A DNA stretch of 49,607 nucleotides from a virus. Below the pieces are notes generated by a model, which saw only the letters and a program-made list of their open reading frames with translations, ran no database searches and was not told the DNA's origin. Shown one piece after another: positions 1 through 33,115 of the stretch (positions within the stretch are counted from its first letter, which is position 1; the number at the start of each line of letters is the position of its first letter). A program made the position numbers and the translations under genes. The stretch lies in the IMG/VR virus record IMGVR_UViG_3300007755_000001, positions 1 through 49,607 of that record, one strand, 5' to 3'.

Positions 1-212
1 TCTACAATCTGACTGAAAGCCACACTAAAGTCGTCTTTCTTTGCTCTTTTGCCTAAATCATCTAACTTCGAGGCCACATCTTTCTTCAATTGAGAAAGCA
101 ACATCGATCCAAAACCAGAAACCATTACTGACGGATCAGTTGGATCATCACTTTTTGAATCAATGACACCAACTGCCTCAGTGATTTCTTTTACTGTATT
201 TAATAAATTCAT
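1..212 (-). CDS. Hypothetical protein, N-terminal part only (runs off the left edge)
   Basis: An open frame starts at an ATG at 212-210 and runs off the left end of the window, giving 70 residues that begin MNLLNTVKEITEAVGVIDSK. I do not recognise the family. The visible part is soluble, mixed in charge and probably helical, with no signal peptide or membrane segment. An exact T4-type late promoter (TATAAATA) lies 5 nt upstream of the ATG, so it is probably a late, virion-related gene with a leaderless mRNA. There is no Shine-Dalgarno sequence. It follows the block of capsid-targeting-like genes. Confidence 0.6.
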   Translation of the reverse strand, partial: MNLLNTVKEITEAVGVIDSKSDDPTDPSVMVSGFGSMLLSQLKKDVASKLDDLGKRAKKDDFSVAFSQIV

Positions 213-217
213 ATCAC

Positions 218-225
218 TATTTATA
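218..225 (-). promoter_or_regulatory. T4-type late promoter (TATAAATA)
   Basis: The minus strand reads TATAAATA, the exact T4 late promoter element recognised by gp55, whose gene is in this window. It overlaps the stop codon of the 221-1555 gene and ends 5 nt before the ATG of the left-edge gene. In T4 this element spans -13 to -6, so the start site would fall on the A of the ATG. Confidence 0.75.
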
Positions 226-1555
226 CTTTTAATTTCTGATTGGACGTCTTGAAGTCTTTCTTCCGCATAATGGTCTTAGAAACCAAATCAAATTCACCAT
301 TTTTCTCATCCCATTTCAACACAAAAGGAAGATTTATATCAGTCTGAATATCATTCAACACTGCTTGAGCATCTGGTCCAAGTTTTGGAATCTTCTTTCC
401 ATATTTCTTGAACGTCTGTTTGAACAATCTTGTTAGTTCTGCTACTGTGATTTCTTTACCGTTTCTCTTGTCATTACAACGCTCAAGGAAATGTCTTGTG
501 AATTCAACATCAATACCAACTTTAGCAAAAATCTTATCAGCAAACTTCTCTACATCATTCAAATTTGCTTTTGTAATTTGCTCTGCGATATACTCTTTAT
601 ATTTTTGAGACTCCTGTTCTGCCTCATATCGAGTTTTTCTATCAAGAACTTTCTTTAATTCTCTACTTGAAATACCAACAATAGAAGCCGCTTTTGATAA
701 AGCAAGTCCTTTTGGATTGGTGATAATAACACCTGGTGATTGCTGTGCTTGTGGATTCTTGTTGTAGTTCTTGACCATTTGATGATAAATCTGCAATGCT
801 TGTTTATACTTCTTTTCGTTAACAGCACGATTAAATCTATGCATCGTTTTCTTACCAATGATTGCTTTGAACATATCTTTGAGTGTTCCTTCTTCTAGTT
901 CGCCTGGAGTCTTGTCTTTATAATTCTTGGTCGTCTCGGACTTACCAAACTCAAGATACTCTTTCAGTCCCATACCCTTGCGTACAGCATTGAATATATC
1001 TTGAGCATCCTTTTCGGAAGTTCCTTTTGGCATTCCATCTTTATATGATTCAAAATCATTATTGGATACGTGATTTCTCATATCAGTACCAGATACTCCT
1101 TTCACTCTAGCACCTCCTCCCTCAATCACTTGGAAATTATCGAAGTCATATGATTTCTTTGGATCTTCGTGTTTGATATATGGACGAATTGACTTCTCAA
1201 AATCTTTAACTCTATCACCACCAACAACCATTGTTACATCTTTGAAGCCTTTATCCGATAGATATTTCAATGCGTGAAATGCTGTTTTAACAGATGAATC
1301 TTTAATGATATTAGCTTTAGGGAAGAACTTCTTGAGGAACTTAGTCTTGTCGTTATATGTCAGTGGATTCTTCTTCGGATCGTTTGATTGTGAAGTGAAA
1401 ATCATTGAACTTCCACCACGCTTTTTGCCTTCAGAGACAACAAAATCGATCATCGCTTGATGACCTTTTGTGATTGGATTGAAGCGGCCAAAAGTGAACA
1501 CTACCGGTTTTAATTTAGCTTCTTCCAATTCAAGAAATTGATTGAATGATTTCAT
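221..1555 (-). CDS. Cytidylyltransferase-fold nucleotidyltransferase with capsid-targeting-like N-terminus
   Basis: This 444-residue protein has a nucleotidyltransferase domain at about residues 16-190. The signature GRFNPITKGH (23-32) is the HxGH-type nucleotide-binding motif, and SGTDMR is an SxTxxR-like motif. A C-terminal region of about 200 residues of unknown function ends in a basic segment. The substrate cannot be told; NMN or a sugar/alcohol phosphate are family options. The N-terminus MKSFNQFLELEEA resembles the T4 internal-protein targeting peptide MKTYQEFIAEA, and L10-E-E12|A13 fits the gp21 cleavage rule (L/I-x-E, cut before a small residue). Its start abuts the 3' end of the 1555-1830 gene, in a block read from the late promoter at 4386. 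I infer that the enzyme may be packaged in the head. Confidence 0.75.
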   Translation of the reverse strand: MKSFNQFLELEEAKLKPVVFTFGRFNPITKGHQAMIDFVVSEGKKRGGSSMIFTSQSNDPKKNPLTYNDKTKFLKKFFPKANIIKDSSVKTAFHALKYLSDKGFKDVTMVVGGDRVKDFEKSIRPYIKHEDPKKSYDFDNFQVIEGGGARVKGVSGTDMRNHVSNNDFESYKDGMPKGTSEKDAQDIFNAVRKGMGLKEYLEFGKSETTKNYKDKTPGELEEGTLKDMFKAIIGKKTMHRFNRAVNEKKYKQALQIYHQMVKNYNKNPQAQQSPGVIITNPKGLALSKAASIVGISSRELKKVLDRKTRYEAEQESQKYKEYIAEQITKANLNDVEKFADKIFAKVGIDVEFTRHFLERCNDKRNGKEITVAELTRLFKQTFKKYGKKIPKLGPDAQAVLNDIQTDINLPFVLKWDEKNGEFDLVSKTIMRKKDFKTSNQKLKV

Positions 1556-1830
1556 TATTCTTCCTCTTCTAATTCTTTTTTACGTTTCGAGCCTTTCAAT
1601 CTTGATTTTTCTGCTCTGCCCTTATTGATAGATTCCTTTTCAAACCCAACTATCTTTCCGCCCTTATGGGAAGCATCAAGTCCATCCCCATTTCCATACG
1701 TGCCTTTTTCTCTATTATAACGATTCAACTCAGCACGATATTTCTTCATCTTGTCTGAGGACTGAAATTTAGCATATTCACGCTTATAATCCCGTTCATA
1801 TTTCTCAATGAATTGTTGGAATGTATACAT
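1555..1830 (-). CDS. Small basic protein with capsid-targeting-like N-terminus
   Basis: This is a 91-residue, highly charged, basic protein of unknown family. I chose the ATG at 1830 because GGGGAT precedes it at good spacing; the longer frame would begin at a TTG at 1842. The chosen start gives MYTFQQFIEKYE, which resembles the MKTYQEFIAE-type peptide of T4 internal proteins, although no clean L/I-x-E|A cleavage site follows. The C-terminal half (DASHKGGKIVGFEKESINKG onward) is rich in Lys/Arg and Gly and ends in a Glu run. It could bind nucleic acid. It overlaps the next gene by one base and sits between two other capsid-targeting-like genes. Confidence 0.65.
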   Translation of the reverse strand: MYTFQQFIEKYERDYKREYAKFQSSDKMKKYRAELNRYNREKGTYGNGDGLDASHKGGKIVGFEKESINKGRAEKSRLKGSKRKKELEEEE

Positions 1831-1832
1831 AT

Positions 1833-3062
1833 CTATCCCCAATTCTTAATAGCGTTGAAATTATTCTTACTAAACTCAAGTCTATTTACTAATTTAACTG
1901 CACTATTACTCATATGGTCAATAGCAACAAATCCCTCAGGACCAGTCACTTCATATCCATTTGAACCTTTGATGAATGCTGGTATTTTATTCACCTTTTC
2001 CATCTTCTTAATGAGCATTAGTTTAATGTCTGCTACTGTATCGTGCCACTCAAGCGCATATGCCAGAGTACCACCGATCTTTCTATTGTTATTAATTACA
2101 GCGATAAGATCATCCAATACTTTTTGTTTCTTCGCTTTACCTTTTTCAGTCTTGAGTTTATCAATCATTGGTTTATATCGTTTTCTAAGGAAGTCGATAA
2201 ATCCACCAATCGCTTTCTGCTTACCAGAGAATCGTTTGCCTTGCTTAGTCAAATCATTGATATAGATTTTCAGGTTGAATGCGATATCAGTCTTACCAAA
2301 CAACACTTCTAATGATTTCTTATCTAGGAGGTTCAACTCATTATGAGCATCATCAAGTCTCTTTTGGAGTGCTTTCATTTCATCAACAGTCAATGAGGCT
2401 GTACCAGAAACGTCTGTAAAATTAGTATCGGTGAACCACACGTCCTTTGTCTTAGTCAACTTTGAAATATTGATATTGAATTGGGCAGATAAATCAGCAA
2501 TATTATTACCCTTATATGTTGTATGCCACACAACCCCAACTTTCGCTTTCTGAATCTCTTTGGCTAGTGGTTGGCTAGTCGGAACAGCATACGTGATCGT
2601 GTTCGGTGTAAATGTTATGTATGATTCACCATCAATAGTCTCTTTCTGTATATCAGATGGAATAAACATAAAATCACCTTGAATGATGCCCTTGATATTC
2701 ATCTTAGGAAATTCTTTCAGTGCTATCTTCATCTTCTCAGCAAGAGAGGCCGCGTGGCCGTGATTCTTGTCGATATCTTCTGGAGTGTAATTCAGTTTAG
2801 GATTCTTGTTGAATACTGCTTTTGTGCCAACGAAGAATTTACCATTCTCTGGATTGATTCCTGCTACAATTGATGGCGCTCCATCGACCTTGGCTTGAAT
2901 GTTGACCGCTTTCTTAGAATGTCCTGATAGACTCTTAGCAACACCATCAAGAATTTTTAATGCTTCAACACCCCCTGCATATCCCTGGTCGAAAATAGCA
3001 TCCTCAATATGCTCCAGGTGAGTTAATTTAGCTTCTGTGATATATTGTTTGAATGTTTTCAT
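1833..3062 (-). CDS. Ligase-like nucleotidyltransferase (possible DUF6267) with capsid-targeting-like N-terminus
   Basis: This 409-residue protein has motifs in the order of the covalent nucleotidyltransferase (DNA/RNA ligase) superfamily. K58-V-D-G61 would be motif I with the adenylated lysine, GTKAVF (79-84) a motif Ia-like step, IIQGDF (126-131) a motif III-like strand, ITYAV (156-160) motif IV, and KVGVVWH (174-180) motif V. This reading is mine from motif spacing; such proteins are usually called hypothetical, and I suspect DUF6267. The N-terminus MKTFKQYITE|AK aligns without gaps to T4 MKTYQEFIAE|A, with I-T-E|A as a gp21 site. The start overlaps the stop of the 3059-4351 gene by 4 bases. 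An RNA ligase, a DNA ligase or a non-catalytic relative are all possible. Confidence 0.7.
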   Translation of the reverse strand: MKTFKQYITEAKLTHLEHIEDAIFDQGYAGGVEALKILDGVAKSLSGHSKKAVNIQAKVDGAPSIVAGINPENGKFFVGTKAVFNKNPKLNYTPEDIDKNHGHAASLAEKMKIALKEFPKMNIKGIIQGDFMFIPSDIQKETIDGESYITFTPNTITYAVPTSQPLAKEIQKAKVGVVWHTTYKGNNIADLSAQFNINISKLTKTKDVWFTDTNFTDVSGTASLTVDEMKALQKRLDDAHNELNLLDKKSLEVLFGKTDIAFNLKIYINDLTKQGKRFSGKQKAIGGFIDFLRKRYKPMIDKLKTEKGKAKKQKVLDDLIAVINNNRKIGGTLAYALEWHDTVADIKLMLIKKMEKVNKIPAFIKGSNGYEVTGPEGFVAIDHMSNSAVKLVNRLEFSKNNFNAIKNWG

Positions 3063-4351
3063 CGTTTTAACTTCATCTTGAATCCAAGTTTATTACCAGA
3101 TGAATACCCTGGCCAGCCAAATTGAAATTCTGCTTCCTTGAAATAGTTACTCTTAAATGCCATCTTCTTGGCTTTCACATCTACATTTAACTGTATCAAT
3201 GTAACCTGTCTGGCTACATTTGTCAATGATTTTTTAATATCTTTATCGTTATTCAGAATCTTCCAAATAGATTCTCCTAGAGGAGATAGAATCAATCTCT
3301 TCTTATCTCTGCCCTTAAATGTCTTTGGACCAGGCATCGAATACTTCTTATGCCAAGAGTTTAACGTCTTTGCCAGATCATCCATTTCTCTATCATCAGT
3401 CCACTTAACAATAGATTCTAATGTGATTTGGTCTGGACTCATATTCATAATCTTGCCTAAGTCTTTCACACACTTAGTATGCATATATTGATGAATCAAC
3501 AACATTTGCTCTTTAGCAGAAAAGTTTCCAACAATATTGAAGATTTGAAGGGCTTTCTCTTGAGAGTGGTCAGCATTAGCAGTTTTAGCACGATTCTTAA
3601 TAGCATCAATAATATTTTTGATAGTTACTTTACCGCCTCCACCAGACTTAACAGAGATAGGATATCTGATACCCATACGTACACCATAGAAGTCGATTAA
3701 CTTCTCATTTGATGCTGTCGGGAAGTATACCTCTCTAAACTTGAGAGAAGTCATAGCCCATATGGCAGAGAGAATTTCTCCGAAGTCTGCTGATACCTTA
3801 GCGAGGTCTTTAGTTGTGAACTCAATATCCTTCAATGTGATATTAGTTGACTTTGTAGATGCCAAATGAAGAAGGGAAATCAACTGATCTGCGATTTCCT
3901 TATCATACTTAGAATTGATTATATCAGTGGTTCTCTTGATTAAGTCTTTCTTATTTAACTGCTGTCCAGCCAGTCCAAGAGAATCTGGAGTCAAATCTTT
4001 ATTTGCGAAAATCTGTCCCCCACTGGTTGTTTGAGAAATTTCTGAATTCACCCACTCCAGTGTAGTGCCCGCAGGTATTTTAGGACTCAATTCTTTTGTT
4101 GTAGTTAGAACATATCCATCATACTTATCAGATACAGTGATACTAGAATCAGTAACTTTGATCCCAATTGGATTGAAAAAAGTATTGAATTCAGGTAATT
4201 TACCCTTCATAGCAAAACGAACGTGATAATCACCGCGCCCAGAACCAATCGCTTTAATGCCATTGTCCTTAATGACCTTATTTACGAATGATTTGAATGC
4301 TCTGATTTCCGGAGATACGGCCTCTGCCAGAAATACCTTAAAACTTTTCAT
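3059..4351 (-). CDS. Unknown protein, possibly PD-(D/E)xK nuclease-like, with capsid-targeting-like N-terminus
   Basis: This is a 430-residue protein. I chose the internal ATG at 4351 rather than the ATG at 4363, because GGA lies 7 nt before it and it gives MKSFKVFLAE|AV, a gapless match to T4 MKTYQEFIAE|A with a proper L-x-E|A gp21 site. The middle of the protein has E192, then LID220, then PISVK235SGGGGK, an order that resembles the E...D...(S/E)xK core of restriction-fold nucleases. This is suggestive only. It is the first gene of the block and lies 34 nt after the late promoter at 4386-4393. I do not recognise the family. Confidence 0.65.
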   Translation of the reverse strand: MKSFKVFLAEAVSPEIRAFKSFVNKVIKDNGIKAIGSGRGDYHVRFAMKGKLPEFNTFFNPIGIKVTDSSITVSDKYDGYVLTTTKELSPKIPAGTTLEWVNSEISQTTSGGQIFANKDLTPDSLGLAGQQLNKKDLIKRTTDIINSKYDKEIADQLISLLHLASTKSTNITLKDIEFTTKDLAKVSADFGEILSAIWAMTSLKFREVYFPTASNEKLIDFYGVRMGIRYPISVKSGGGGKVTIKNIIDAIKNRAKTANADHSQEKALQIFNIVGNFSAKEQMLLIHQYMHTKCVKDLGKIMNMSPDQITLESIVKWTDDREMDDLAKTLNSWHKKYSMPGPKTFKGRDKKRLILSPLGESIWKILNNDKDIKKSLTNVARQVTLIQLNVDVKAKKMAFKSNYFKEAEFQFGWPGYSSGNKLGFKMKLKR

Positions 4352-4385
4352 TAATAATTCCATTATAGATGTTCATCTTATTACA

Positions 4386-4393
4386 TATTTATA
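4386..4393 (-). promoter_or_regulatory. T4-type late promoter (TATAAATA)
   Basis: An exact TATAAATA on the minus strand sits in the short gap after helicase gene 41 and before the four capsid-targeting-like genes. The predicted start near 4380 gives a leader of about 29 nt with a GGA before the ATG at 4351. It places that block in late expression, apart from the early replication genes around it. Confidence 0.75.
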
Positions 4394-29598: not shown

Positions 29599-30801
29599 TT
29601 ACAGGTCTGTAACAGTGAACTTACGGAAGTAAGGATTAGCACCAGCGGCACCAGTAGCATATGGGTTATGAGTAAGACCATAACGAGTCTTGAAGCCAAG
29701 ACGTGGCTGGAAGTCTTCCTCACCAATTGACTTCATCAACTGTAGAGGTACATATGGGCAGTAGAAAAGACCTGCATCATACATATTAGCACCTTTATAA
29801 CCAACAGTCACATAGTCGCTAGTTGCGAACTGATCAATGAATACCTTGAACTTACCACCAAGAACACCAGCAAAAGTGTTGTTAGTAACGTCAGGCTGCA
29901 TACCATTATCAAGTGACATATTAGGCTCAGCTAAACCTGCAACCATATCAAGTGCAGAAGCAACATCTGGTGAACAAATTAACCAGTTACCACGACCACG
30001 TCCAGTGTTCAAGGCAATTTGGTTAGCTTCACGATTGATCTGGATAAGAAGAGATTTATAACGCTCTCCGCCCCAACGAGCACCACGATTATCAGCGGCA
30101 TCATTAACATCAAAAGTACCAGCAGTAGTAGTACCAGAAGCGGCACCAGCAGTTGCTTGAGAGTTAATCTTCTCAATTACTTCACGATTGATTTCAGCAA
30201 GAATTTCAGCAGAAAGGATGTTGCTTAATTCAGACTCAGCGTCCAGACCGTGGATAGCCTTAAGATCCTGAGCAAGCTCTAAAGAATACTTGGCTTTAAG
30301 CGCACGAGTACCAGCAGTTACGCTAGACTTCTCGATTGAGAAAGACATTTCTTTGAAATCTCCACCACCTGCAACAAAGCCACCTAGAGCCTCGCCATCA
30401 GCAGTTGTGTATGTAGTAGTAGCTGGTGATGCACCATCATTACCTGAGAAGTCAACATCAGGCTGACCAGCCGGAAGCGCAAGTGCTTCGGCGCCAGTAG
30501 AAGCCTCACCAGTATAATGACTCTTCATAGCGAAGATTAGACCGGTTGGACCTGACATTGGTTGAACACCGATAGTATCATAAGCCATTAGCTGTGGCAT
30601 AGTTCTACGTACTAATGAAATTAGAATTGGATCCCAATTATCAACATTAGCGCCAGTTACGTTTGCTTCTTGCAAAGCAGTTTCTTGATTTTCTAAAAGA
30701 CGAAGTGTAATTGCCTTCTTTGTAGCATCCTGGATTTTTGGTAAATCCTCGTGCTCCATTACTGGCTGCCACTTATCTTTAATTTCTTCTGATAAAAACA
30801 T
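29599..30801 (-). CDS. 23: Major capsid protein gp23
   Basis: This 400-residue protein (T4 gp23 has 521) has DPILISLVRRTMPQLMAYD followed by IGVQPMSGPTGLIFAMKS, the conserved T4-like capsid core. The N-terminal prohead segment ends at a probable gp21 cleavage site, L43-Q-E45|A46-N, as T4 cuts after E65. Later segments WLICSPDVASALDMV and CPYVPLQLMK are also typical. AGGAG lies upstream. No TATAAATA is directly upstream, so it is read from the gene 22 promoter or beyond. Confidence 0.96.
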   Translation of the reverse strand: MFLSEEIKDKWQPVMEHEDLPKIQDATKKAITLRLLENQETALQEANVTGANVDNWDPILISLVRRTMPQLMAYDTIGVQPMSGPTGLIFAMKSHYTGEASTGAEALALPAGQPDVDFSGNDGASPATTTYTTADGEALGGFVAGGGDFKEMSFSIEKSSVTAGTRALKAKYSLELAQDLKAIHGLDAESELSNILSAEILAEINREVIEKINSQATAGAASGTTTAGTFDVNDAADNRGARWGGERYKSLLIQINREANQIALNTGRGRGNWLICSPDVASALDMVAGLAEPNMSLDNGMQPDVTNNTFAGVLGGKFKVFIDQFATSDYVTVGYKGANMYDAGLFYCPYVPLQLMKSIGEEDFQPRLGFKTRYGLTHNPYATGAAGANPYFRKFTVTDL

Positions 30802-30829: not shown

Positions 30830-31924
30830 TTAAGCACCTAAAATGCTTGTTTCTCTTGATTGTGAAAGTGAATCCATTACTGCTTTCATAGAAGCAGACA
30901 TTTCTTCATCAGTCGCTTTTGCATCAGATTTATCCTCAGCAATTACTTTTTCTTTCTCTGCCTCGCCAGGAAAGTACGTTTCCTTTAGAGTGTTCAACTT
31001 CTCAGTATATGTTTCAGCAGAATCAAATTCTACACCTTCAGCAAGAGATTTCATCTTCTCTACCTGTGACATAGTTAATTCTTCTGTTACTTCACTGAAA
31101 ATCTTTTCGGCAGTAGTCTCCGCAAGTTGAGCCTTAACTTCGATGTTTTTATTCATCTCAGCATCTAACTCTTCTTTCAGACCTTCAATCTCTTTAGCCT
31201 GCTCATCTACAACATTGTATTTCTCTTCTGGAATTTCAATGTAGTTTTCAGCAAACAGAGTTTGTAGACCGCCAACAAAACCCTCAAGGATTTCGTTCTT
31301 TAATCCATTCTCTACGGCAACCTTGTTATCTTCAACCCACTCAGTAACCATATAGTCTAAATAACCATCTAGTTTTGCAGTGATATCTTCCAACATAGAT
31401 TCAGTTTGCTCGGCAAGTTTTGCTTCCATAGACTCTTCAATCTTAGAAATATTCTCTTTAACCTTCGCTTTAACCGCAGTTTCAAATACTAAAGTAGTAC
31501 GAGCCTTGAAGTCTTCCGTCAACTCTTGGCCGTCGAATAGTGCATCCACGTCCTCAGTAACATCTACTTCAATCTCTACTTCTTCTTTTGTTGCTTTCTT
31601 GGTTTCTTCTACTTCATCGTCATCATCTTCATCCGCTTCATCACCATCTTCTTCTTCGTCTTCCATTACTTCGACTTCGCCAGAACCATCTGCCTTAATC
31701 TTTTTCTTTTTCAACGCTTTAGCTTTAGGTGTTTCTGCTTCTTCAAGAGAGTCAGCCTCAGTAATTTCAGAATCCTCAGCAACCATTTCTAGTTCCCCTT
31801 TTTCTAAAAGTTCCTCAGCCTCTGACACATTGATAGAAGTATCAGACGAAGCATCTGCGCTAATCCAAGCGTTCTGCTCCTCATCTAAAACCAACATTTC
31901 GCCAGTTTCTGTTTTTAACTTCAT
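30830..31924 (-). CDS. 22: Prohead scaffold (core) protein gp22
   Basis: This 364-residue acidic, helical protein lies between protease 21 and capsid 23, as in T4 (gp22 has 269). Residues about 85-115 are a long Asp/Glu run, and the C-terminal two thirds are coiled-coil forming (KVKENISKIEESMEAKLAEQ and so on). Several L/I-x-E steps are present for gp21 processing. It forms the assembly core and is removed as peptides. AGGAG precedes the ATG, and a late promoter lies 57 nt upstream. Confidence 0.88.
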   Translation of the reverse strand: MKLKTETGEMLVLDEEQNAWISADASSDTSINVSEAEELLEKGELEMVAEDSEITEADSLEEAETPKAKALKKKKIKADGSGEVEVMEDEEEDGDEADEDDDDEVEETKKATKEEVEIEVDVTEDVDALFDGQELTEDFKARTTLVFETAVKAKVKENISKIEESMEAKLAEQTESMLEDITAKLDGYLDYMVTEWVEDNKVAVENGLKNEILEGFVGGLQTLFAENYIEIPEEKYNVVDEQAKEIEGLKEELDAEMNKNIEVKAQLAETTAEKIFSEVTEELTMSQVEKMKSLAEGVEFDSAETYTEKLNTLKETYFPGEAEKEKVIAEDKSDAKATDEEMSASMKAVMDSLSQSRETSILGA

Positions 31925-32017: not shown

Positions 32018-32659
32018 CTACAACTTGTTTATAAAATCTTCAAAAATTCGTGCTTCTAACCCAGTCAACTGGCTCTTAGGCGTATTTTTGATTGTTTTAT
32101 TCATTTCAGCAATATCTTTTTCAAGAATAATGCCATTGTTCCAAATCCATTCTTTACCTTCCATAATACCATTTACAAAGGCATCTGGCGCAGATGGATC
32201 TGCCACAATGTCAGCGGCAGTAGCAAGATAAAAGTCACCCTGTACTTCCTGAATTCCTTTCTTATTTGCTTTCAGTGTTCCCATACCTCTTGACGAAACG
32301 CCAAGTTGGGCACCTTCATTAATAAGATTCTTGACAATATTTCCGTGTGGTGTGTCTGTAATCTTAGCCTTACCAATATAATTTGAACCATCTTTCCTTA
32401 GTTCAGTGATAATATGTGATACACGATCAAGATTAATAGTTGGACCTTCTGGATGACCTAACTCACCAAATGCACGTTTCTTGTTAATGTATGTTTCTGT
32501 ATAACGATTAACTTCCTTTTCCATAATCGCACCAGGATATACTCGACCGTTACGATTCTTTAGGTCTGCTTGTAAAAATACTCCCTCAATATAAAGGTCC
32601 TTTCCCTTACCTTCAGTAATATATTCTACAGACTCATTAACTTCTGATATTAGTCTCAT
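32018..32659 (-). CDS. 21: Prohead protease gp21
   Basis: This 213-residue serine protease (T4 gp21 has 212) has RAFGELGHPEGPTINL with the catalytic His and LGVSSRGMG with the catalytic Ser, and a conserved DFYLATAADIVADPSAPDA segment. It cleaves capsid, scaffold and internal proteins after L/I-x-E. Its own N-terminus has YITE|GKGK, a candidate self-cleavage site. It lies between the core protein and gene 22. Confidence 0.94.
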   Translation of the reverse strand: MRLISEVNESVEYITEGKGKDLYIEGVFLQADLKNRNGRVYPGAIMEKEVNRYTETYINKKRAFGELGHPEGPTINLDRVSHIITELRKDGSNYIGKAKITDTPHGNIVKNLINEGAQLGVSSRGMGTLKANKKGIQEVQGDFYLATAADIVADPSAPDAFVNGIMEGKEWIWNNGIILEKDIAEMNKTIKNTPKSQLTGLEARIFEDFINKL

Positions 32660-32668
32660 ACGCCTCTC

Positions 32669-33115
32669 CTACTTCTTGGTGTATCTTGATTTGATTTTTC
32701 CACCAAATACTCTATTAGCATTAGCAATTTTTGATTTATTTCTACGAATCCATTTCTTTCTTAATTTCAATCGTTTAACTTTATTGCTACCTTTCTTACG
32801 GTCAATCTTCGCCTTTAGTTTAACACTGCGATCCTTGAATTTGTTTCTATCTTTATTGAGTTGGGTTTTTCTGCGTTTTTGTGTGTTACGTGCTTGATAT
32901 CTTTTAGGTGAATTTTCATCAATATCTTCATCCTCAAACACTTCATCATCTTTTTCTTTGTCGCCGTCTGTATTAGTCCATACAGCACCACCATTAGAGG
33001 CCTCTTCAAGCTCTGCTTGTTCTTCCTCAGATAGCTCATTCCAAGACTCTTCGGAGAACTCAATAATATCGAATAATTCTTCCAAATCTTCTCTTAATAT
33101 TTTGAATGATTTCAT
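32669..33115 (-). CDS. Prohead core-like protein, acidic then basic (gp68 position)
   Basis: This 148-residue protein begins MKSFKILRED, like the other capsid-targeting-like N-termini. It is acidic to about residue 70 and then strongly basic (RNTQKRRKTQLNKDRNKFKD to the end). A gp21-type site L-E-E38|A39-S lies in the acidic part, so processing could release a basic DNA-binding fragment inside the head. It takes the place of T4 gene 68 between the gp67-like gene and 21. Sequence similarity to T4 gp68 is not clear to me. Confidence 0.7.
   Translation of the reverse strand: MKSFKILREDLEELFDIIEFSEESWNELSEEEQAELEEASNGGAVWTNTDGDKEKDDEVFEDEDIDENSPKRYQARNTQKRRKTQLNKDRNKFKDRSVKLKAKIDRKKGSNKVKRLKLRKKWIRRNKSKIANANRVFGGKIKSRYTKK

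What the first reader, a model, noticed from the sequence alone, without database searches (positions are those of the whole stretch)
221..4393. A late-expressed block of four proteins with T4-like capsid-targeting N-termini: candidate injected enzymes
Seen: the N-termini MKSFNQFLELEE|A, MYTFQQFIEKYE, MKTFKQYITE|A and MKSFKVFLAE|A resemble each other and T4 internal proteins (MKTYQEFIAE|A); two align without gaps, and three have an L/I-x-E|A step as cut by gp21, which is encoded at 32018. The bodies of the proteins are unrelated: a nucleotidyltransferase, a KxDG ligase-like protein, a possible PD-(D/E)xK protein and a small basic protein. The block is bracketed by exact late promoters (4386 and 218) among early replication genes. 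Known: in T4 such peptides send IPI-IPIII into the prohead, and the proteins are injected with the DNA. Inference: this phage packages and injects a set of enzymes, perhaps to repair or protect DNA or to act against host defence.
Basis: partly seen in the sequence, partly recalled or inferred. Interest (0 to 1): 0.9.

Follow-up and report, generated by a model that had tools for sequence, protein, structure and literature searches.

The report
Virus enzymes tagged for head packaging
A run of unrelated genes in this marine T4-like virus shares a short address label at the start of each protein that, in T4, sends proteins into the virus head to be injected into the next host; the same label turns up on dozens of other virus enzymes, and published mass spectrometry has already found labelled relatives inside virus particles.

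Summary
Four adjacent minus-strand genes (221-4351) begin with the same signal: aromatic residues at 4 and 7 and I/L at 8 in all four, and a gp21-type L/I-x-E cut site in three. These are the positions mapped by mutation in T4's capsid-targeting sequence (CTS). No other gene in the window has it except one chance half-match. The phage encodes gp20-gp23, including the gp21 protease, and its capsid protein carries an LQE|A site.

Comparative tests support a real, portable signal. In IMG/VR relatives it heads DUF6267, the nucleotidyltransferase and ORF D as a removable tag. A tag pattern matched at least 120 stretches; a codon-permuted control matched 0. The 86 hits read fall into 47 sequence clusters. 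Near DUF6267 loci 54/904 other genes carry it; 0/443 in neutral contigs. A late promoter precedes ORF D in 11/11 relatives.

Published proteomes give a retrospective test. In cyanophage S-CREM2 the strict tag marks 4/52 virion proteins and 0/167 others. Tagged nucleotidyltransferase homologues are in S-CREM2 and S-SZBM1 virions; their untagged DUF6267 proteins were not detected.

Verdict: packaged enzymes, likely injected; the fourth (small) protein is doubtful; substrates and targets unknown. New variant of a known kind.

The parts
4386..4393 (-). T4-type late promoter TATAAATA of the block, about 35-42 nt upstream of ORF D
   Evidence: Exact match; conserved upstream of ORF D in 11/11 distinct relatives.
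3059..4351 (-). ORF D, 430 aa, function unknown; conserved NExLxDFYG..YPxSVKSGGG (possible PD-(D/E)xK nuclease, not confirmed)
   Evidence: No Pfam or PHROG family; one hit in 50,697 phage records, phage C48C1, 15 loci in IMG/VR; alignment; AF2 model pLDDT 72.8 with no PDB match.
4322..4351 (-). Predicted capsid-targeting propeptide of ORF D: MKSFKVFLAE|A
   Evidence: Strict motif; M1 and E10 invariant, F4 at least 90%, in A4; region disordered in the model.
1833..3062 (-). DUF6267 protein, 409 aa (PF19782), with KxDG and EGxVA/VKLVxR motifs resembling ATP-dependent ligases and RNA ligases
   Evidence: Pfam E=1e-108; 470 phage records, mostly cyanophages; invariant K58, D60, G61, E376, G377, K390, R394; fold not confirmed.
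3033..3062 (-). Predicted capsid-targeting propeptide of DUF6267: MKTFKQYITE|A
   Evidence: F/Y4 33/33, I/L8 29/33, E10 30/33 in 33 homologues; absent in S-CREM2 and S-SZBM1 homologues, which were not detected in virions.
1555..1830 (-). Small basic protein, 91 aa, phrog_6437; half-motif MYTFQQFI without a cut site; doubtful cargo
   Evidence: PHROG hit; homologues lack a conserved tag.
221..1555 (-). HIGH-type nucleotidyltransferase, 444 aa (PF01467), with GRFNPITKGH and SGTDMR motifs and a C-terminal domain that is a separate gene in some relatives
   Evidence: Pfam, PHROG cytidyltransferase, NCBIfam cyt_tran_rel below cut-off; homologues in virion proteomes; gene fission.
1520..1555 (-). 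Predicted capsid-targeting propeptide of the NTase: MKSFNQFLELEE|A
   Evidence: Aromatics at 4 and 7, L8; cut site L-E-E|A after residue 12; homologues carry e.g. MKTYTEYLEE|A and MINRFSQFLVEE.
218..225 (-). Late promoter of the next downstream gene (untagged, runs off the record)
   Evidence: Exact match; position.
32018..32659 (-). gp21-type prohead protease that would remove the propeptides
   Evidence: PF03420 E=1.2e-36.
30830..31924 (-). gp22-type scaffold, the expected binding partner of targeting sequences
   Evidence: PF25623 E=1.7e-62.
29599..30801 (-). Major capsid protein gp23 with LQE|A processing site at residues 43-46
   Evidence: PF07068 E=1e-121; site.

Best explanation
The block is a late-expressed cargo operon of a T4-superfamily phage. 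The nucleotidyltransferase, the DUF6267 protein and ORF D each begin with a T4-type capsid-targeting propeptide (consensus M-x-x-F-x-x-[FY]-[IL]-x-E). It binds the scaffold core (gp22 and the small core proteins) during prohead assembly and is cut off after the L/I-x-E glutamate by the gp21 protease, leaving the mature enzyme among the packaged DNA. The enzymes then leave the head with the DNA and act in the host in the first minutes. Shown here: the motif, its modularity, its spread over many unrelated families, late promoter conservation, presence of the gp21 machinery, and virion presence of homologous tagged nucleotidyltransferases in published data. Inferred: scaffold binding, cleavage, injection, and a role in early takeover or counter-defence (for the nucleotidyltransferase, adenylyl or cytidylyl transfer as in nucleotide or NAD metabolism).
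For: T4 mutagenesis places targeting at residues 4 and 7 and processing at 8 and 10 of the CTS (PMC9026906); the same positions are fixed here. Tags are modular on three unrelated families in about 100 IMG/VR loci. The tag pattern hits at least 120 stretches and a permuted control 0; the 86 hits read fall into 47 clusters, with synonymous codons varying, so selection acts on protein. 54/904 neighbouring genes are tagged against 0/443 control genes, permuted motifs 0-1. In S-CREM2 the strict tag is on 4/52 virion and 0/167 other proteins, Fisher p=0.003 (with the virion list of PMC10665884). Tagged NTases are in S-CREM2 and S-SZBM1 virions; NTase homologues are also reported in S-SM1 and S-SCSM1 virions. 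Untagged DUF6267 of S-CREM2 (gp87) and S-SZBM1 (gp135) are absent from those lists. The gp21 family is in 15/50 tagged records against 4/37 control records, and in 3/3 tagged records over 150 kb. In the first 100 kb of T4 the strict rule finds only ipII, ipIII and 61.1. When the NTase C-terminal domain is a separate gene it carries its own tag-like start (L008, L010, L011).
Against: No proteomics exists for this phage. In S-SZBM1 only one of three tagged annotated proteins was among the 30 detected. Authors of the cyanophage proteomes warn of carry-over of abundant proteins. Some tagged proteins elsewhere are lysis-type enzymes (glucosaminidase, lysozyme, RlpA-like), which are odd cargo. Residue 11 in DUF6267 homologues is often not A. 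The small protein does not fit.
Confidence: 0.8

Rival explanations
1. The proteins are packaged by the tag but are not injected effectors: they act inside the prohead or virion (DNA condensation, head maturation) or remain bound in the empty head.
For: T4 IPIII also affects head assembly (PMC9026906); some tagged neighbours are small and basic; the gp67/68-position gene 32669 has a similar MKSF start.
Against: Bodies are enzyme families with conserved active-site motifs (nucleotidyltransferase, adenylate kinase, HD hydrolase, SAM lyase), hard to explain as head building blocks; T4 IPs and Alt are ejected and act in the cytoplasm.
Confidence: 0.12
2. The shared N-terminus is not a capsid signal but some other terminal signal (membrane or nucleoid association, mRNA start element, or a recombination seam between genes).
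For: N-terminal only, modular, in genes prone to rearrangement.
Against: Synonymous codons vary freely, so it is not an mRNA or DNA element; fixed positions equal the T4 CTS determinants; co-occurrence with virion proteomics and enrichment with gp21; the tag ends in the protease consensus also used in the MCP.
Confidence: 0.06
3. The four N-termini are alike by chance or by low-complexity K/F-rich starts, and the proteins are ordinary late cytoplasmic enzymes; virion detections are carry-over.
For: Carry-over is raised by the proteome authors; the small protein matches only half of the motif.
Against: A run of four at about 2e-5; 0 hits for permuted pattern; 0/443 control genes; conservation in dozens of homologues.
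Confidence: 0.04

Closest known systems
T4 internal proteins IPI-IPIII and Alt with the capsid-targeting sequence (Tequatrovirus)
   Same: N-terminal propeptide with aromatics at 4/7, I/L at 8, E at 10; gp21-type protease; late T4-type promoter; unrelated bodies sharing only the leader.
   Different: Here the bodies are large enzyme-like proteins (409-444 aa), not small basic inhibitors, in a marine T4-superfamily phage; the cargo genes lie behind the replicative helicase gene (dnaB/gp41), and many more protein families are involved.
Virion-associated NMNAT/cytidylyltransferases, SAM hydrolase and kinases of cyanophages (S-CREM2, S-SCSM1, S-SZBM1, S-CBWM1)
   Same: Homologous nucleotidyltransferase found in particles by mass spectrometry; N-termini checked here in S-CREM2 and S-SZBM1 carry the tag.
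   Different: The published work proposed no targeting mechanism and allowed for carry-over; the tag was not reported there in the passages read.
P1 DarB capsid-targeting signal
   Same: N-terminal signal sufficient to send a reporter into a myophage head; anti-restriction cargo.
   Different: No shared consensus between Dar proteins and no T4-like CTS/L-x-E motif reported (PMC9024508).
Ejection proteins of SPN3US/phiKZ giant phages
   Same: Propeptides cut after E by a gp21-related protease; many injected proteins.
   Different: Different propeptides and an inner body; no common short CTS (background from PMC9026906).

Membership tests
T4-type CTS-bearing internal (injected) proteins | N-terminal propeptide of about 10-19 residues with targeting residues at 4 and 7 | tested here: met
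   NTase, DUF6267, ORF D and the small protein have aromatics at 4 and 7; conserved in homologues of the first three.
T4-type CTS-bearing internal (injected) proteins | Processing residues: I/L at 8 and E at 10 (L/I-x-E cut) | tested here: met
   Met for DUF6267 and ORF D (E10|A11) and, two residues later, for the NTase (LEE|A after 12); not met for the small protein.
T4-type CTS-bearing internal (injected) proteins | gp21-type prohead protease and gp22-type scaffold in the same genome | tested here: met
   PF03420 and PF25623.
T4-type CTS-bearing internal (injected) proteins | Late expression with head proteins | tested here: inconclusive
   Exact late promoter conserved in 11/11 relatives; no transcriptome.
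T4-type CTS-bearing internal (injected) proteins | Presence in purified virions | tested here: inconclusive
   Not known for this phage; homologous NTases are in four cyanophage virions; DUF6267 and ORF D untested with a tag.
T4-type CTS-bearing internal (injected) proteins | Cleavage by gp21 and ejection into the host | not testable with these tools
   Needs N-terminal mapping and infection experiments.
HIGH-superfamily nucleotidyltransferase (PF01467) | Pfam model and GxFxPxxxGH / SxTxxR motifs | tested here: met
   PF01467 34.5 bits against cut-off 21; GRFNPITKGH and SGTDMR present.
NMN adenylyltransferase (NadR/NadM/NMNAT) | Curated equivalog score | tested here: not met
   Best NCBIfam scores 16-17 bits against cut-offs 127-397; substrate unknown.
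DUF6267 (PF19782) | Pfam gathering score | tested here: met
   364 bits against cut-off 27.
KxDG nucleotidyltransferase/ligase superfamily | Ligase-type fold and motifs I-V | tested here: inconclusive
   KxDG, QGD, EGxVA and KxVxR conserved, but no PDB sequence hit and no fold match for a model with pLDDT 76.6.
PD-(D/E)xK nuclease (ORF D) | Core fold with E...D...xK | tested here: inconclusive
   Conserved E216, D220 and SVK235, but this region has pLDDT below 50 and no PDB match.

The most novel reading that the evidence does not exclude
Across marine and environmental T4-superfamily phages a single short N-terminal zip code, readable from sequence alone, marks a large and changing arsenal of injected enzymes (nucleotidyltransferases, adenylate kinase, RNA-ligase-like protein, SAM lyase, HD hydrolase, zeta-toxin-like kinases, GNATs and tens of unknown families), concentrated in a cargo locus behind the replicative helicase gene. 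Gene fission and fusion re-tag each free polypeptide.
Probability: 0.65. Interest if true: 0.85.

Novelty: new variant of a known kind. Interest (0 to 1): 0.76.

Why it matters
Which proteins tailed phages inject besides DNA is known for a few model phages only. A tag that can be recognised in raw sequence would let the injected cargo of abundant ocean phages be listed without culturing them. It offers a mechanism for the unexplained enzymes repeatedly found in cyanophage virions and gives precise peptide-level predictions. It also points to candidate first-minute counter-defence enzymes in families with no known function, such as DUF6267 and ORF D. In the library searched, the only paper holding both 'capsid targeting' and 'cyanophage' was a T4 review; most subscription journals and preprints are not in that library.

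Tried and rejected
Fold identification of DUF6267 and ORF D: AF2 models of moderate confidence gave no significant PDB match, and profile searches of PDB sequences gave nothing; ligase and nuclease labels are kept only as motif-level leads. NMNAT identity of the NTase: rejected at curated cut-offs. S-SZBM1 as a second proteome test: uninformative for the motif as a whole (1 of 3 tagged proteins detected, 30 proteins in all). A first neutral control pattern gave only 5 hits and was replaced by a looser one. The gp21-linkage test has low power because most records are fragments; in records of 60 kb or more the contrast is weak (8/10 against 4/7). Late promoters are not generally enriched upstream of tagged genes (4/85 against 2.3% background), so the promoter argument holds for ORF D's family only. 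The small protein as cargo: rejected as unsupported. The internal LKEYLE in the NTase was considered as a fossil tag but appears to belong to the domain itself. DUF6267 as a keyword gave no papers. No Rfam family matches the window.
Full report
What is there. The record is a 49.6 kb IMG/VR fragment of a T4-superfamily phage with portal gp20, gp21 protease, gp22 scaffold and gp23 capsid protein. On the minus strand, behind the dnaB-type helicase gene, lie ORF D (3059-4351), DUF6267 (1833-3062), a small protein (1555-1830) and a nucleotidyltransferase (NTase, 221-1555), nearly abutting or overlapping by a few bases. Their N-termini are MKSFKVFLAE|A, MKTFKQYITE|A, MYTFQQFIEKYE and MKSFNQFLELEE|A. 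Only these four consecutive genes and one chance case among 57 predicted genes show the half-motif; such a run is expected at about 2e-5.

Why the comparison with T4 is more than a resemblance. In T4 IPIII the targeting function maps to residues 4 and 7 and processing to 8 and 10 of the first ten residues (PMC9026906). In 33 DUF6267 homologues position 4 is F/Y in 33/33, position 8 I/L in 29/33 and position 10 E in 30/33, with position 7 mostly aromatic (22/33), while positions 2, 3, 6 and 9 vary. The ORF D homologues show M1 and E10 invariant and F4 in at least 90%. In the predicted structures of DUF6267 and ORF D the tag is low-confidence and outside the fold. The capsid protein of this phage has its own L-Q-E|A site.

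The tag is modular. In IMG/VR relatives it sits before three unrelated proteins with linkers of differing length and sequence. When the C-terminal part of the NTase is a separate gene it carries its own tag-like start: MKSFKEYIEE|GTLKD in L010, MLSFKQHLFE in L008, and a GTG-initiated KSFKEHLNE in L011; in the fused window protein the junction reads LEE|GTLKD. DUF6267 occurs both with the tag (most loci) and without it (S-SZBM1 MAKNTHLEHLEDD; S-CREM2 MNKATKPLTHIEHPED).

The tag is a general signal. The 86 hits read fall into 47 sequence clusters, with only one ORF below 45 residues that is not cut by a contig end. They include adenylate kinase, cytidylyltransferase, DUF6267, RNA-ligase-like, HAD phosphatase, GNAT, glucosaminidase, lytic transglycosylase and lysozyme families. 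Codons vary synonymously, so the constraint is on protein. Around DUF6267 and ORF D loci, leaving out DUF6267, the NTase and ORF D themselves, 54 of 904 genes carry the strict motif against 0 of 443 genes in neutral contigs, and permuted motifs give 0-1. These neighbours form 22 clusters, including zeta-toxin-like P-loop proteins, HD hydrolases and DUF5824. A RimK-like ATP-grasp gene in the same neighbourhood (L017) lacks the strict tag. Genes are not independent samples: related contigs were only roughly de-duplicated.

Link to the gp21 machinery. The gp21 family PF03420 is found in 15 of 50 tagged records against 4 of 37 neutral records. Below 60 kb the numbers are 7/40 and 0/30; at 60 kb or more, 8/10 and 4/7; the three tagged records over 150 kb all have it. 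In the first 100 kb of T4 the strict rule hits only ipII, ipIII and gene 61.1.

Retrospective proteomics. For cyanophage S-CREM2 the published virion list has 52 proteins (PMC10665884). Applying the strict rule to all 219 annotated proteins gives four hits, all in virions: SAM hydrolase gp6 (SAM lyase family), APH-like kinase gp14, gp136 and cytidylyltransferase gp154. None of the 167 other proteins match (Fisher p=0.003). With a looser rule two further virion proteins, gp12 and gp13, join as near-matches (7/52 against 3/167, p=0.002). The authors could not decide between packaging and carry-over; the tag favours packaging. The S-CREM2 NTase is a homologue of the window's (34% identity, E=5e-25); its untagged DUF6267 (gp87) is not in the virion list. 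S-SZBM1 repeats this: tagged NTase detected, untagged DUF6267 not. Two small tagged S-SZBM1 proteins were not among the 30 detected. NTase homologues are also reported in S-SM1 and S-SCSM1 virions.

Expression. A TATAAATA late promoter lies upstream of ORF D in the window and in 11 of 11 distinct relatives, so the block has its own late start amid early replication genes.

How it most likely works. Late transcription makes the three enzymes together with head proteins. The leader binds the scaffold core, the proteins are enclosed in the prohead, gp21 trims the leader after L/I-x-E, DNA is packaged around them, and they leave with the DNA at infection. The first steps are supported by the data above; scaffold binding, trimming and ejection are inferred from T4. 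In T4 the injected proteins block type IV restriction enzymes (PMC12373910). For the enzymes here the substrate is unknown. The NTase is a HIGH-superfamily enzyme but misses curated NMNAT cut-offs. DUF6267 and ORF D have conserved polar motifs but no recognised fold.

Relation to what is known. It works like the T4 CTS system and meets the defining features that could be tested. What differs is the type of cargo (enzyme-sized, enzyme-like proteins), the phage group, the helicase-linked cargo locus and the breadth of families. Related T-even phages were already known to carry many internal proteins recognised by their leader. In the open library the only paper holding both 'capsid targeting' and 'cyanophage' was the T4 head-assembly review. 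Hence new variant of a known kind.

Noticed in passing
L269:18966-19130 (phage T4 gene 61.1): T4 gene 61.1 (54 aa, hypothetical) begins MKTFKEFIKE, a full CTS match: a candidate additional T4 internal protein.
   Followed up: no
window 32669-33115: Gene between portal and gp21 protease, at the place of T4 gp67/68, starts MKSFKILREDLEE; no Pfam or PHROG match; a likely prohead core protein with an N-terminus related to the cargo tag.
   Followed up: partly
L002:7622-9031 (phage C48C1 63448-64857): The C48C1 cytidyltransferase start is probably misannotated: a GTG at 63448 gives the tagged N-terminus MIKNFSQYLLEEE, cut off in the deposited protein.
   Followed up: no
L100:7704-10313 (S-CREM2 gp12): Annotated as CRISPR-Cas9 nuclease but no Pfam or NCBIfam support; carries a tag-like LRFASFMAE|A at residues 17-26 and is a virion protein.
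   Followed up: partly
L078:1997-2560 and L025:5799-6362: HD-domain (HD_4) proteins near DUF6267; the L078 one carries the strict tag (MESFKQYISE), the L025 one a variant start (MKSFNQFREE). They resemble RelA/SpoT-type HD hydrolases, a possible injected alarmone hydrolase.
   Followed up: partly
L015:5518-6561, L017:7283-8215, L096:6147-7922: Tagged P-loop proteins (zeta-toxin-like weak match in L015) form a frequent companion of DUF6267.
   Followed up: no
window 221-1555, residues about 216-223: The NTase junction reads GELEE|GTLKD where relative L010 has a separate tagged gene MKSFKEYIEE|GTLKD: a possible internal gp21 site separating two domains.
   Followed up: partly
window 3-212: Next gene (untagged, runs off the record) with its own late promoter; similar starts occur at the same place in relatives (L008:12987, L017:6100).
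   Followed up: no
L271-L274 (S-SZBM1 122311-123125): Two adjacent tagged small proteins next to a virion structural gene (MKSFKSFLSE, MKTFKQYITEA); the first resembles tagged genes in L118 and L143.
   Followed up: no
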